A stretch of 13,235 bases of DNA from Methylococcaceae bacterium NSM2-1 (GTDB lineage: Bacteria; Pseudomonadota; Gammaproteobacteria; Methylococcales; Methylomonadaceae), in assembly GCA_002256705.1 (NCBI GenBank), contig NQJI01000011.1:1-13235 (forward strand), written 5' to 3'. Under the pieces are notes generated by a model. That model saw only the letters and a list, made by a program, of their open reading frames with translations. It did no database searches and was not told the origin of the DNA. The position numbers and the translations under genes are program-made. Every line of letters starts with the position of its first letter. Position 1 is the first letter of the stretch. Of the stretch, positions 5,099 through 11,820 are shown in pieces.

Positions 5099-6661
5099 TC
5101 AATTAAGGTTTCGGTAATCTGCCAAATTTATTTCATATTTTTTAAGTTTACTATAAACAGCACGTGAGGTAATCCCCATGTTTTCAGCGACTTTTTTTAT
5201 ATCGCCCTGATGCTGCTTTAAAGCCGTCTCAAGAAATGACTGTTCAATCCTGGCCATCGACTGTTCTTTTACGCCTTTCCATTCATCAACACTTTTTGGA
5301 TTGATCGGCAACTCTAAATCCAGTTCAGTCATTTCTTTGCCGTTGGTAAACAAAAGGCTGCGTTCAAGGATATTTTCCAACTCGCGGACATTGCCTGGCC
5401 AGGAATAGGCGCGAATTTTCTGCATGACTTCACGGCTGACTGATTCAACGGCTTTGTTATATTTCTTGTTCAAACGCTGAACAATCAATTGCACAAGGTA
5501 AGGTAAATCTTCCGGTCGTTCGGCCAATGGGGGAATGCTTAAACGGACTACGTTGATGCGGTAATACAAGTCATGGCGAAACAGACCCTGTTTAACAAGT
5601 TCTTCCAGATTTTGGTTTGTCGCCGAGATTATCCTCAAATCAACCGGCAAGGTTTGTTTGCCACCAACCCTTTCCAGTTCACCTTCCTGAATCACACGAA
5701 GCAGGCGGGTTTGTGCAGCAGGTGACAATGTATCGACTTCATCCAGGAACAGAGTGCCGCCTTCAGCCCTTTCAAAATAACCTTGATGCACTTCTATGGC
5801 TCCTGTAAAAGCGCCTTTTTCATGGCCGAACAAGGCGCTCTCGATCAGACTTTCAGGAATGGCTCCGCAGTTAATTGGGATAAAGGGCTTCTGGCAGCGA
5901 TCACTCATCGCGTGGATGGCTCGTGCAATCAACTCCTTGCCGACCCCCGTTTGACCCTGAATTAGGACTGTCGCCAGGGTGGGCGCAATCACTTCGATGG
6001 ATTGCAGTATTTTCTGCATCATCGGTGATTTGGCAATGATCGCCGGGGGCTGATGTTTTTTTGAGACCGGCCTGCTTTGTTTGTGCCAAAGCTGTTGCAT
6101 GCTTGCTTCAATGCGGGAGTGTAATTCATTAATATCCTGAATTTCCTTGACTGGCGTTGTATCGGTGTATTCCATGCCGGCATGTCCTTTGGCTGCATTC
6201 GGATGGGTGTAAATACACACTTCACACTTGCCATCATGGCGGGCTATGCTTTTTTTGATTTCAACTTTGGCATAGCCGAAGTTTCTGGCTGCGATGCCGC
6301 CAAATACACTGGAGGTCATTCTGCATAATTCCGGAAAATTGGTAACCCGATCGCCGAAAGGGCAGCAGGAGTTGGTAACCGTAATGCAGTCCTGATTGCT
6401 GGAAGCCAATGAAAATTTGCCGCCGATATTGTTTTTAAGGCCGAGTATCAGCTCGATATAACTTTCATTGTCGAGCCGTTCACTTTTATGTGTCTCTTCT
6501 CGATACGTTTCTTCAAAAAAGCATCCGGCGGTTTTGGCTATGTGTTCAATCAATTGCTCACAATGCTTTTGCCCCTGCTGTTCGCTGGCATGCATCAGCT
6601 CAAGGATAAAGGTTTGCAGAAAGAAAACTGGTGTTACATCGGAAAGGGGATTATTGTTCAT
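5099..6661 (-). CDS. Sigma-54-dependent transcriptional activator with a cysteine-rich N-terminal sensor domain
   Basis: A 520-residue enhancer-binding protein that would remodel RNA polymerase-sigma54 by ATP hydrolysis. The AAA+ domain (about 208-445) is complete: Walker A GQTGVGKE (236-243), the sigma-54-contacting GAFTGA loop (283-288), Walker B GGTLFLDEVD (301-310), and WPGNVRELEN (421-430). A Fis-type helix-turn-helix ends the protein (about 485-508). The N-terminal 190 residues are neither a response-regulator receiver nor a PAS domain. They contain CCPFG (99-103), ELCRM (C113) and KCEVC (C146, C149), resembling the domain I know as metanogen output domain 1. The spacing C100-X12-C113 recalls cluster ligands of SufR-type regulators (inference). 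The start is ATG at 6661, without a clear ribosome site. It is divergent from the methyltransferase gene, whose promoter it probably controls. Confidence 0.93.
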   Translation of the reverse strand: MNNNPLSDVTPVFFLQTFILELMHASEQQGQKHCEQLIEHIAKTAGCFFEETYREETHKSERLDNESYIELILGLKNNIGGKFSLASSNQDCITVTNSCCPFGDRVTNFPELCRMTSSVFGGIAARNFGYAKVEIKKSIARHDGKCEVCIYTHPNAAKGHAGMEYTDTTPVKEIQDINELHSRIEASMQQLWHKQSRPVSKKHQPPAIIAKSPMMQKILQSIEVIAPTLATVLIQGQTGVGKELIARAIHAMSDRCQKPFIPINCGAIPESLIESALFGHEKGAFTGAIEVHQGYFERAEGGTLFLDEVDTLSPAAQTRLLRVIQEGELERVGGKQTLPVDLRIISATNQNLEELVKQGLFRHDLYYRINVVRLSIPPLAERPEDLPYLVQLIVQRLNKKYNKAVESVSREVMQKIRAYSWPGNVRELENILERSLLFTNGKEMTELDLELPINPKSVDEWKGVKEQSMARIEQSFLETALKQHQGDIKKVAENMGITSRAVYSKLKKYEINLADYRNLN

Positions 6662-6692
6662 GGTCTGATTTTGAAAAAAAATTTCACTAATT

Positions 6693-6705
6693 GAAGCACG
6701 GCTTC
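6693..6705. promoter_or_regulatory. Candidate upstream activating sequence (dyad) for the sigma-54 activator
   Basis: A perfect inverted repeat, GAAGC-acg-GCTTC, lies 32 bases from the activator's start codon and roughly 90-103 bases upstream of the predicted start of transcription of the methyltransferase gene. That is the usual place for an enhancer-binding protein site. Only one clear copy is present, so the assignment rests on position and symmetry. Confidence 0.45.
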
Positions 6706-6726
6706 GTTATTTCGGCAATGACTAAT

Positions 6727-6739
6727 AATCAACTCATTG
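6727..6739 (+). promoter_or_regulatory. IHF binding site between enhancer dyad and sigma-54 promoter
   Basis: AATCAACTCATTG matches the IHF consensus WATCAANNNNTTR at every defined position. It lies between the dyad and the -24/-12 promoter, about 57-69 bases upstream of the predicted transcription start, where IHF commonly bends DNA to bring the activator to the polymerase. A 6-bp inverted repeat, CAATGA (6716-6721) and TCATTG (6734-6739), overlaps it. Confidence 0.55.
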
Positions 6740-6769
6740 TAATTTATAAAAAATGTTATTTGTATTTTG

Positions 6770-6785
6770 TGGCACAACATATGCT
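6770..6785 (+). promoter_or_regulatory. Sigma-54 (-24/-12) promoter of the methyltransferase gene
   Basis: TGGCACAACATATGCT matches the sigma-54 consensus TGGCACGRNNNTTGCW at 11 of 13 defined positions, with the invariant GG and GC at the exact 10-base separation. Transcription would start near 6796 and leave a leader of about 46 bases, containing the TGAGG ribosome site before ATG 6842. Its position opposite a sigma-54 activator gene strengthens the call. Confidence 0.8.
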
Positions 6786-6841
6786 GTTGTTTACATGCAT
6801 CTGATAATTTTGATTGCATTTATAATAATGAGGTATTAACA

Positions 6842-7495
6842 ATGAACCAAGAAAAACCACCCCTGGACCCGCATCCTTTAAGCGAGTACGTTGCCTGGGC
6901 CGGTTCCCGCAATCGGGAGCCGCTGTTAGGGGTTTTAAAAGAAAAACTGCCAAAAGATCCCGCCAATGTTCTGGAACTTGCCAGCGGCAGCGGTATGCAT
7001 ATCAACTATTTTGCACCGCATTTTGAGCACTTGCATTTTCATCCGTCCGACAAAGATAAAGAAGTTTTTGATAACATCAAGAAACTGTCTACAGATTATG
7101 GCAATGATAATATCACCGATCCGGTGCATCTTGATTTGACCGATCCTGAAACGTGGTTTAATCCAGGCAAGGCGAAATCATTTGCCGCCATGTTCTGTAT
7201 CAATATCTTTCAGGTGGCACCCATTTCAATTGCCGACGGCATGATGGAGTGCGCAGCAAATTTGCTGAGTGATGATGGCATTTTGTTGATTTATGGACCC
7301 TTTCAGGTTGAAGGCACCTTTACCACGGATTCCAATAAAGAATTTCACGAGACATTAAGTTCTGCCGGTGTTTCAGAATGGGGTCTAAAAGATGTGGCCG
7401 ATCTGAAAAAAGCAGCAGAAAGACATGGTTTGGAATTAAAAGAGCAGATCAATATGCCTGCGAATAATTTTTCCCTGATATTTGGCAGAAAATAA
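6842..7495 (+). CDS. DUF938-family SAM-dependent methyltransferase
   Basis: A 217-residue class I Rossmann methyltransferase of the DUF938 family; the substrate is unknown. The N-terminal part has SRNREPLLGVL, where the family usually has a similar SSxRNxxPIL segment. The SAM-binding glycine loop is LELASGSGMH (44-53), followed by FHPSD (66-70), which corresponds to the family's typical WQPSD. Later come MFCINIFQVAP and the GILLIYGPF strand. The start ATG at 6842 has TGAGG at 6829-6833. The frame extends upstream to an ATG at 6767, but that would begin inside the sigma-54 promoter. It is the first gene after the promoter and probably the main target of the divergent activator. An SDR gene follows after 133 bases. 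Confidence 0.87.
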   Translation: MNQEKPPLDPHPLSEYVAWAGSRNREPLLGVLKEKLPKDPANVLELASGSGMHINYFAPHFEHLHFHPSDKDKEVFDNIKKLSTDYGNDNITDPVHLDLTDPETWFNPGKAKSFAAMFCINIFQVAPISIADGMMECAANLLSDDGILLIYGPFQVEGTFTTDSNKEFHETLSSAGVSEWGLKDVADLKKAAERHGLELKEQINMPANNFSLIFGRK

Positions 7496-7628: not shown

Positions 7629-8363
7629 ATGGAGAAAAAATGTTCAGCCGTTATCATCGGGGTTGGTCCAGAGCAAGGACTGGGCGCTACTCTCTCAAAA
7701 TATTTTGCTGCAAAAGATTTGCACGTTTTTATCGCTGGTCGAAGTGAAGACAAACTTCACAAGATTGCGGAAAAAATCAGGCAAAAAGGCGGTACAGCCA
7801 CCACAGTGATTGCCGATGCAACGATTGAGCGCGATGTGGCGCATTTATTCAAAATGGCGCAACTGGATGGTAATAGTATCGATATTGCTGCCTACAATGT
7901 TGACAGCAATATTCCATCACCTTTGCTGGAAACGGATATAGATACCTTTACCAAACTTTGGCAGCAAAATTGTCTGGGCGCATTTTTATTCGGCAAGGAA
8001 GCTATTAATGCCATGAAAGACCGGCGGCAAGGGACCGTGTTTTTTACCGGTGCGACAGCATCATTAAGAGCAAAACCACCGTTTACTGCATTTGCCTCTG
8101 CGAAAGCGGGTTTAAGAGCGTTGGCCCAAGGCATGGCAAGAGAATTTTCACCGCAAGGCATTCACGTAGTGCATACCATTATTGACGGCGTGATTGATGG
8201 CGAACGGGCAAGAAATCAATTTCCGGACTATGTTAAAGCCAAAGGCAAGGAGGGCTTATTGCAGCTTGATGCCATCGCCGAAACCTATTGGGCCATTCAC
8301 AAGCAGCATCCCAGCGCATGGACTCATGAACTGGATTTGAGACCGTTTAAAGAACCGTTTTAA
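7629..8363 (+). CDS. Atypical short-chain dehydrogenase/reductase (SDR_c10-like, Tyr replaced by Phe)
   Basis: A 244-residue Rossmann-fold protein of the classical SDR size. The nucleotide-binding loop GVGPEQGLG (11-19) departs from the usual TGxxxGxG, and AGRS (36-39) with Arg38 suggests NADP(H). The catalytic region reads TGATASL (140-146), then FASAK (155-159) where a classical SDR has YxxxK, so the general-base Tyr is replaced by Phe155 while Lys159 remains. This matches what I know of subgroup c10 in conserved-domain collections, which is defined by an incomplete glycine motif and Phe for Tyr. Oxidoreductase activity is therefore uncertain; it could bind nucleotide for another purpose. 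The start ATG 7629 has GGA at 7617-7619. It lies between the methyltransferase and transpeptidase genes on the same strand. Confidence 0.88.
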   Translation: MEKKCSAVIIGVGPEQGLGATLSKYFAAKDLHVFIAGRSEDKLHKIAEKIRQKGGTATTVIADATIERDVAHLFKMAQLDGNSIDIAAYNVDSNIPSPLLETDIDTFTKLWQQNCLGAFLFGKEAINAMKDRRQGTVFFTGATASLRAKPPFTAFASAKAGLRALAQGMAREFSPQGIHVVHTIIDGVIDGERARNQFPDYVKAKGKEGLLQLDAIAETYWAIHKQHPSAWTHELDLRPFKEPF

Positions 8364-10260: not shown

Positions 10261-10437
10261 ATTTAAAAACAATTAGTAAACAAATCATTAATAAATAATT
10301 TCATAGCGCTGCACTAATGGAATTTTTCTTGGTCATATTGGGTTATAAAAAGATTCAGTCGTTCAATTATATCGTCTGCATAGTGCGAATTAACGGCTTT
10401 TGGTTTTAAGATATTCTGTTTGCGAGGATATGGTGTT

Positions 10438-11820
10438 ATGGCTTATTTAGATACACATTTTTCAAAACAAGAAATAGGAATCGTTGTTGATAATATTCCT
10501 ATTGAAACTGAACAACCTGCAAGCGGTATTAATGACACGACAGAGTGTGCAGAGAATAGTAATTTTCAAATAGCCCGTCTGTTAAAAGGCGAGAAATCCA
10601 GGCTGATAAATGCACTATCTCAATTCCCCATCACTGCTTTATGGTTGCTTAATGAATATGGACAAGACTGTTACATGGCTGACCAGGATGATGAAGCAAC
10701 GCTGGAATCAGAGTTAACAACTGCTTTAGCCGATATAAAAAAATTTTTTCATTTCCTATCCCACAAAGCTTTGACGGATGCCTCTTATGCCGTTGACAAG
10801 CAAAATCTAGTCTCCGCATTGCAACTGTTTCCCTTTTCTTTTCATGATCTTACAAAACTCGTTGATGTTATTGTTTATGCCTATAAGTTCAGAGGACTTT
10901 GTTATCAACCCACCGCGCATAATGGCGAAAAAAATTCCGATTTAATTCTTAAGCGATTGGAAGGGTTGAGCCGTCGTGGCTCTATTAACAGGTTCAAATG
11001 GCCGGATATGCTATTGTCTTATGATGAGCAATTTTTGTTTTTGTCCACTAGTGACATGCATAAATACTTTACCGAGGTGGTTTTTTCAGAACACCTCTGG
11101 TTAAGTCTAAGGCAAAAATTGGCTTCAGCTAATTCCAGGTTAGTCTTATTCATCGCCAATCAATACAAGGGCGGTTTTTTAGATTTTGATGATCTTGTAC
11201 AGGAAGGTCAGACCGGTTTGTTAAAAGCGGTCGATAGGTTTGATTACCGGTTGGGTTTTCAATTCTCAACTTATGCCGGCTACTGGATCAGACAGGCTAT
11301 CTCCAGGTCTTTGTCCAGATGCGAGAGAGTTGTGCGTGTGCCTTGCGGACAAGTCGCCAATATTAATAAATTGTTTCGTACTAAAGACCAGTTTATTGCG
11401 CAGACAGGCAGAGAGCCTACCATTAAAGAGTTAGCCGAATATGCAAAACTATCGAATGACGAAATACATTCTATTTTATCTATTTCACAAACAGCCATGT
11501 CGCTTGAAGGCTCTGAAGAGGATGAAGAAAATTCTTTTGCCCCCATTGATTTTCTGGAACAGCAGGTTTTTACGCATTCTTTCATGAAAATAGCGCAAAC
11601 CGATCTTGAAAATTTGATAAGCAGGGCCATTAAAATACTTAATCCCAGAGAGGCGAAAGTCATTTGTTGCCATTTTGGTGTTGATGCTGACAGTGAAATG
11701 ACTTTGCAGGAAATTGGTGCAGAACTTAATTTAACCAGGGAACGCATAAGACAAATTCAGGTAATGGCGCTTGATAAAATAAAACGCAGCTTTGGCGAGG
11801 AATTAATGAGCTTTTTATAA
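10438..11820 (+). CDS. RpoD-derived alternative sigma-70 factor
   Basis: A 460-residue sigma-70-family factor that would direct RNA polymerase to its own promoter set. Regions 2.1-2.4 are clear (LVLFIANQY, FDDLVQEGQTGLLKAVDRFDYR, FQFSTYAGYWIRQAISR, about 235-290). Region 3 has TGREPTIKELAE (about 323-334). Region 4 has LNPREAKV and the -35 helix LTRERIRQI (about 401-440). The N-terminal 225 residues lack RpoD region 1.1 and the usual region 1.2 motif. They retain stretches like the RpoD non-conserved domain, such as INALSQFPITALWLLNEY. It is therefore a divergent RpoD paralogue (group 2-like), distinct from RpoS and RpoH. The start is ATG 10438 with GAGGA at 10424-10428; an in-frame TTG at 10420 overlaps that site. 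An ftsH gene follows after 172 bases. Confidence 0.9.
   Translation: MAYLDTHFSKQEIGIVVDNIPIETEQPASGINDTTECAENSNFQIARLLKGEKSRLINALSQFPITALWLLNEYGQDCYMADQDDEATLESELTTALADIKKFFHFLSHKALTDASYAVDKQNLVSALQLFPFSFHDLTKLVDVIVYAYKFRGLCYQPTAHNGEKNSDLILKRLEGLSRRGSINRFKWPDMLLSYDEQFLFLSTSDMHKYFTEVVFSEHLWLSLRQKLASANSRLVLFIANQYKGGFLDFDDLVQEGQTGLLKAVDRFDYRLGFQFSTYAGYWIRQAISRSLSRCERVVRVPCGQVANINKLFRTKDQFIAQTGREPTIKELAEYAKLSNDEIHSILSISQTAMSLEGSEEDEENSFAPIDFLEQQVFTHSFMKIAQTDLENLISRAIKILNPREAKVICCHFGVDADSEMTLQEIGAELNLTRERIRQIQVMALDKIKRSFGEELMSFL

What the first reader, a model, noticed from the sequence alone, without database searches (positions are those of the whole stretch)
6662..6841. Complete enhancer-IHF-sigma54 promoter between a sigma-54 activator gene and a DUF938/SDR gene pair
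In order, the 180-bp divergent gap contains a GAAGC-acg-GCTTC dyad (6693-6705), a fully consensus IHF site (6727-6739), an 11/13 match to the -24/-12 promoter with exact GG-GC spacing (6770-6785) and a TGAGG ribosome site. The adjacent gene encodes an activator with an intact GAFTGA loop. I know of no described sigma-54 regulon containing a DUF938 methyltransferase with an SDR_c10-like protein, so this looks like an uncharacterised inducible pathway.
Basis: partly seen in the sequence, partly recalled or inferred. Interest (0 to 1): 0.78.

Follow-up and report, generated by a model that had tools for sequence, protein, structure and literature searches.

The report
Conserved sigma-54 switch for sulfur-gas enzymes
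A methane-eating bacterium carries a genetic on/off switch in front of two little-known enzyme genes, and in many related methane- and ammonia-oxidising bacteria the same switch stands before an enzyme gene that resembles one that breaks down carbon disulfide, which hints at what the unknown genes are for.

Summary
Taken singly the motifs are weak. Comparison makes them strong: in 90 orthologous loci, 86 keep at least 13/14 of the tandem box, 87 keep at least 9/11 of the -24/-12 site, and box-to-promoter spacing is 63-65 bp in 78 of those 86. Sites face the target gene in 82/90 and the activator in 0/90. IHF is only partly conserved.

The output gene varies: DUF938 in 57/90, a CS2-hydrolase-like clade-D beta-carbonic anhydrase in 29/90. 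Three loci carry a second box pair before DUF938. In 369 class-wide genomes the activator family (14) and the CS2-hydrolase-like gene (12) co-occur in 10, close together. The sensor folds like the phenol sensors of MopR, PoxR and DmpR.

Best reading: a ligand-gated sigma-54 regulon whose older partner is a CS2/COS-type hydrolase and whose methanotroph branch drives DUF938-SDR. Architecture is well supported; ligand and DUF938/SDR chemistry are inferred; no expression data.

The parts
5099..6661 (-). Sigma-54 activator, 520 aa: MetOD1 sensor (18-150), AAA+ with GAFTGA, Fis-type HTH
   Evidence: Pfam; invariant GAFTGA (283-288) and Cys100, Cys113, Cys146 in 38 sequences; sensor fold
6672..6686 (.).
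   Evidence: tandem pattern 0 of 5000 shuffles; at least 13/14 of the tandem pattern in 86 of 90 loci
6692..6706 (.).
6727..6739 (+). IHF-like site AATCAACTCATTG
   Evidence: 9/9 to consensus; complete in 16 of 90 other loci, 0 of 31 ammonia-oxidiser-titled
6770..6785 (+). -24/-12 sigma-54 promoter TGGCAC-N5-ATGCT
   Evidence: 10/11; at least 9/11 in 87 of 90 loci; oriented 82 to 0 of 90
6796..6796 (+). Expected transcript start (inferred from -12 position)
   Evidence: inference only; not mapped
6829..6833 (+). TGAGG ribosome-binding site of DUF938
   Evidence: sequence
6842..7495 (+). DUF938 methyltransferase-like protein, 217 aa, with the motif ELASGSGMH
   Evidence: PF06080 E 9.1e-56; alignment A2
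7629..8363 (+). Short-chain dehydrogenase/reductase, 244 aa
   Evidence: PF00106 E 4.1e-28

Best explanation
A one-component, ligand-gated sigma-54 regulon. The activator (5099-6661) binds two tandem TGAA-N7-TTCA boxes beside its own gene. When its MetOD1 sensor, of the V4R/Bet3 fold, binds a small hydrophobic molecule, the AAA+ ring contacts sigma-54 RNA polymerase at 6770-6785, helped by DNA bending (IHF at least in methanotrophs), and switches on DUF938 and SDR. The module's older partner appears to be a CS2-hydrolase-type clade-D beta-carbonic anhydrase, so the likeliest inducer is CS2, COS or a related sulfur compound, and DUF938-SDR (in relatives with beta-CA, DUF1326 and PpoB2) most likely handles that compound, its products or its damage. 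Shown by sequence: genes, boxes, promoter, spacing, linkage, predicted sensor fold. Inferred: binding, RpoN dependence, ligand, chemistry of DUF938 and SDR. My odds: regulatory architecture about 0.9; sulfur-gas ligand about 0.45.
Against: Four DUF938-SDR loci unlinked to the activator have no tandem box. IHF is not conserved in full outside methanotrophs. In distant families the hydrolase lies on the same strand as the activator in 9 of 10, the boxes are tandem in five of the nine readable ones and single in four, and box-to-promoter distance is 78-127 bp, not 63-65. The window itself has no hydrolase in the cluster; the held genome's only close beta-CA lies on another contig without box or promoter. 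The operon beta-CA resembles carbonic anhydrases more than COS hydrolase. No ligand, binding or expression data.
Confidence: 0.55

Rival explanations
1. The regulatory anatomy is as described, but the signal is not a sulfur gas: the beta-CA-type proteins act on CO2 or another small molecule, or the sensor detects aromatics or solvents as MopR and DmpR do.
For: The sensor fold matches phenol sensors. The operon beta-CA is nearest to carbonic anhydrases. Substrate cannot be read from sequence with certainty.
Against: The 29 hydrolase-first loci carry the Phe-Phe motif and match CS2 hydrolase far above the other beta-CAs; PMC8209446 (passages) says CS2 hydrolases show negligible or no CO2 hydration.
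Confidence: 0.35
2. DUF938-SDR is a passenger: the activator's real target is the hydrolase, and in loci like the window the promoter now drives genes of unrelated function.
For: Hydrolase linkage is older and wider; DUF938-SDR also exists without the promoter; the first-gene type changes at least four times on the activator tree.
Against: DUF938 follows the promoter in 57 of 90 loci, co-occurs with the activator in 15 of 15 relatives, and has its own second box pair in three loci.
Confidence: 0.15
3. The motifs are chance and the genes are expressed from an ordinary sigma-70 promoter.
For: Single motifs are not rare in an AT-rich gap; a 9/12 sigma-70-like match lies at 6801-6829, though the region has fewer such matches than shuffles (4 against a mean of 7.1).
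Against: Conservation, orientation (82 forward, 0 reverse of 90; control stretches 0 and 1 of 88), and spacing.
Confidence: 0.03

Closest known systems
XylR/DmpR/MopR/PoxR aromatic-sensing sigma-54 activators
   Different: Sensor is PF18546 MetOD1, no PF02830 V4R match; 7-10% identity in structural alignment; targets are beta-CA-type hydrolases or DUF938-SDR, not aromatic catabolism
MetOD1 proteins of methanogens
   Same: Same Pfam domain with a cluster of three conserved Cys (PMC5847659, section 18)
   Different: Here fused to a sigma-54 activator in bacteria; the table passage read lists MetOD1, REC-MetOD1 and REC-PAS-MetOD1 in methanogens
CS2 hydrolase (Acidianus, PDB 3ten/3teo)
   Same: The alternative first gene matches it over residues 6-191 at E 2.4e-52, with Phe-Phe and Zn-site motifs
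   Different: Not in the window; in Nitrosomonadaceae and some Methylococcales under this promoter; activity untested
Marinomonas PpoB1-PpoB2 (tyrosinase and its copper chaperone)
   Same: PpoB2-family protein (PF09948) in operons of relatives; PpoB2 transfers copper (PMC2855505, passages)
   Different: Partner here is DUF1326, not a tyrosinase; neither gene is in the window

Membership tests
Sigma-54 (-24/-12) promoter with upstream activator sites | GG-N10-GC with TGGCAC-N5-TTGC consensus | tested here: met
   10/11 in the window; GG-N10-GC in 89 of 90 loci
Sigma-54 (-24/-12) promoter with upstream activator sites | Conserved activator-binding sites upstream at fixed helical phase | tested here: met
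   63-65 bp in 78 of 86 loci, 52-54 in 5, 60-62 in 3
Sigma-54 (-24/-12) promoter with upstream activator sites | Transcription needs RpoN and the activator | not testable with these tools
   rpoN gene present in the held genome and in 40 of 41 genomes; no expression data
Sigma-54 enhancer-binding protein (AAA+) | Sigma54_activat domain, intact GAFTGA, C-terminal HTH | tested here: met
   PF00158 E 2.1e-69, PF02954 E 6.1e-08; GAFTGA invariant in 38 sequences
XylR/DmpR (V4R) activator subfamily | PF02830 V4R sensor by sequence | tested here: not met
   MetOD1 is the hit instead; NCBIfam MobR model far below cut-off, 296.3 of 999 bits
XylR/DmpR (V4R) activator subfamily | V4R-type sensor fold with a Cys cluster | tested here: met
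CS2 hydrolase (for the gene that replaces DUF938 in 29 loci) | Clade-D beta-CA with CS2-hydrolase Phe-Phe motif and Zn-site residues | tested here: met
   29 of 29; PDB match; motif named in PMC6382920 (passage)
CS2 hydrolase (for the gene that replaces DUF938 in 29 loci) | Hydrolyses CS2 and COS, hardly CO2 | not testable with these tools
   needs an enzyme assay
DUF938 (PF06080) | Pfam score above gathering cut-off | tested here: met
   189.3 bits against 27

The most novel reading that the evidence does not exclude
A dedicated regulatory circuit for biological CS2/COS handling: a MetOD1 sigma-54 activator that senses CS2-like volatile sulfur, passed between methane oxidisers and ammonia oxidisers whose copper monooxygenases such compounds inhibit, with DUF938-SDR as a new enzymatic route for the same class of compound.
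Probability: 0.35. Interest if true: 0.78.

Novelty: new variant of a known kind. Interest (0 to 1): 0.62.

Why it matters
DUF938 is a methyltransferase-like family for which the held library has no paper under that name; a human member, METTL26, is recalled, not checked. This module gives the family a genetic context and a short list of inducers to test. It also predicts a regulator for CS2-hydrolase-type enzymes and a shared response in methane and ammonia oxidisers, groups that matter for methane and nitrous oxide budgets. CS2 is a reported inhibitor of ammonia monooxygenase (Hyman 1990, seen only as a reference-list title).

Tried and rejected
Dyad as a terminator hairpin: listed by the scan, but the genes on both sides diverge from it. 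A dyad as such as evidence: rejected, 39% by chance. A many-gene regulon: in 61 relatives the exact tandem pattern lies at this kind of locus in 13 of the 17 genomes with the activator (G016 counted), and scattered exact hits also occur in G042, G045 and G048, which have no activator orthologue and are taken as chance; one-mismatch hits are about as frequent as the reversed-pattern control in many genomes. The same scan of 22 ammonia-oxidiser genomes (list cut) gave more one-mismatch hits than the control but I did not follow them, so no wider regulon is claimed or excluded. The operon beta-CA as a COS hydrolase: not accepted. A sigma-54 site for the activator gene: none of at least 9/11 on the reverse strand in 90 loci. 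DUF938 structure: not obtained. DUF1326 in the window's genome: no match, but the genome is 65% complete. Full-length activator model is modest (pLDDT 73.0), so the sensor was folded alone (pLDDT 89.6). The PDB sequence search with alignment A3 says nothing on the sensor, because two full-length rows (P0141, P0164) were in it.

Full report
What is in the window. The window is contig C3 of a 65%-complete genome whose activator is nearest to Methylococcaceae/Methylobacter records. The gap 6662-6841 separates a leftward sigma-54 activator (5099-6661) from rightward DUF938 (6842-7495) and SDR (7629-8363).

Chance. In 5000 dinucleotide shuffles of the gap a -24/-12 match as good occurs in 1.3%, an IHF match as good in 3.0%; a perfect 5-3-5 inverted repeat of any sequence is in 39% of 2000 shuffles. 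The tandem pair of TGAA-N7-TTC boxes, starts 20 bp apart (6672 and 6692), occurs in none of 5000.

Conservation. A scan for the activator found 94 relatives and kept 80 loci, from Methylobacter, Methylovulum, Methylomonas and other Methylococcales and from Nitrosomonas, Nitrosospira and Nitrosovibrio. Sixteen more, the window among them, came from 61 related genomes. Without the window, four copies and one locus lacking upstream DNA, 90 loci remain. Of these, 64 have the tandem box at 14/14 and 86 at 13/14 or better; 87 have a -24/-12 match of at least 9/11; 89 keep GG-N10-GC. From box pair to -24 it is 63-65 bp in 78 of 86, 52-54 in 5 and 60-62 in 3. The two main classes differ by about one helical turn. 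Sites of at least 9/11 within 170 bp face the target gene in 82 of 90 and the activator in 0 of 90; stretches 700-870 bp away have 0 and 1 of 88. The IHF consensus is complete in 16 of 90 and in 0 of 31 ammonia-oxidiser-titled loci, so that element is only partly conserved.

Output genes. The first gene after the promoter is DUF938 in 57 of 90, a CS2-hydrolase-like protein in 29 of 90, and in one locus each a beta-CA, an SDR remnant, a MEDS-domain protein, or nothing recognised. Of the 57 DUF938-first loci, 49 show SDR in the stretch held; 22 of the 49 also have a beta-CA gene, 21 DUF1326 and 19 a PpoB2-family gene. In Methylobacter KS41 (L032) the hydrolase sits at the activator and DUF938 follows under a second complete box pair and -24/-12 site. 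L039 has a second DUF938 with its own box pair and promoter; in L108 DUF938 lies beyond the other end of the activator with its own box pair and a -12 variant with TTGT. The promoter thus goes with the genes.

Counter-evidence. In 22 ammonia-oxidiser genomes, 9 have DUF938. Four orthologous DUF938-SDR loci there (L174, L175, L176, L180; 81-84% identical) are not next to the activator and have no tandem box; three of the four have no GG-N10-GC site in 300 bp. The pair can live without this control. In G058 the hydrolase lies away from the activator, without box or promoter.

Relatives. DUF938 orthologues (44% identity or more) occur in 15 of 61 relatives, more distant DUF938 proteins (30-34%) in 10 others. 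The activator orthologue occurs in 17, counting G016, where a contig end cuts it. All 15 have the activator. The two without DUF938 are G011, with an SDR remnant at the promoter, and G046, with a beta-CA as first gene.

The hydrolase. It matches CS2 hydrolase 3ten at E 2.4e-52, the next PDB sequence at 7.5e-24. The Phe-Phe motif, called characteristic in PMC6382920 (passages), and the CMDER and HTxCG motifs are in 29 of 29. PMC8209446 (passages) says CS2 hydrolases show negligible or no CO2 hydration. From recall only: the Acidithiobacillus thiooxidans S1p enzyme has two insertions that the KS41 protein seems to share; that paper is not held. The beta-CA of the DUF938 operon is nearer to carbonic anhydrases than to COS hydrolase; the window's genome has such a gene on another contig, without box or promoter.

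Wider sample. In 369 genomes drawn across the class, the activator family (E up to 1e-120) is in 14, the hydrolase (E up to 1e-60) in 12, both in 10 (Fisher p 5.7e-15). In the 10 the genes lie within 2.8 kb, in 9 on the same strand. Nine of the 10 hydrolase genes have a -24/-12 match within 350 bp upstream, five with a tandem box and four with a single box, at 78-127 bp where tandem, so the geometry differs from the window's. The tenth (L262) is parted from an intact box pair and promoter by a transposase-like gene. Three hydrolase genes away from any activator have neither. Two more activator genomes have a beta-CA as divergent first gene: L272 with a 10/11 site, L263 with an exact tandem box but no site of 9/11. 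The remaining two are the window and another methanotroph with DUF938 (G039). A hydrolase is therefore the probable older partner.

History. In a quick tree of 88 activators (SH-aLRT only, midpoint root) ammonia-oxidiser sequences lie among methanotroph ones in two places, the larger set beside the window and its relatives. The hydrolase/DUF938 label changes at least four times. Exchange of the module between these groups is the simplest reading.

Mechanism. Shown: genes, boxes, spacing, promoter, linkage, predicted sensor fold. Inferred: the activator binds the boxes, ligand binding frees the AAA+ ring, a DNA bend brings it to the promoter, transcription starts near 6796, and the boxes, 11-45 bp from the activator ATG, also let it limit its own expression. 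The guess at the ligand rests on the hydrolase link.

Literature. 'DUF938' gave 0 papers, 'CS2 hydrolase' with Nitrosomonas 0, 'carbon disulfide hydrolase' 2, 'CS2 hydrolase' 23, of which 20 listed, 'methanogen output domain' 2. The library holds open-licence papers only, so absence is limited to it.

Noticed in passing
G002:C11, G015:C11, G017:C9, G019:C208, G023:C158: A distant DUF938 paralogue (31-34% identical) lies about 3-4 kb from rpoN in five Methylobacter-genus genomes.
   Followed up: no
L092:5109-5876(-): A second activator of Nitrosomonas supralitoralis has a MEDS-domain (DcmR sensory domain) gene as first gene behind the same kind of box pair and promoter.
   Followed up: no
L262 (G404:C1), 5114-6361: A transposase-like gene lies between an intact box pair and -24/-12 site and the CS2-hydrolase-like gene, which probably cuts that gene off from its promoter.
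   Followed up: partly
L064 (same locus as L005, G011:C152): DUF938 is gone and only the last 60 codons of SDR remain, right behind an intact promoter.
   Followed up: no
window 10420-11820(+): A sigma-70-family protein of 466 aa with regions 2-4 and a long N-terminal part without a Pfam match; below cut-off for the RpoD, RpoS and MzaA models.
   Followed up: no
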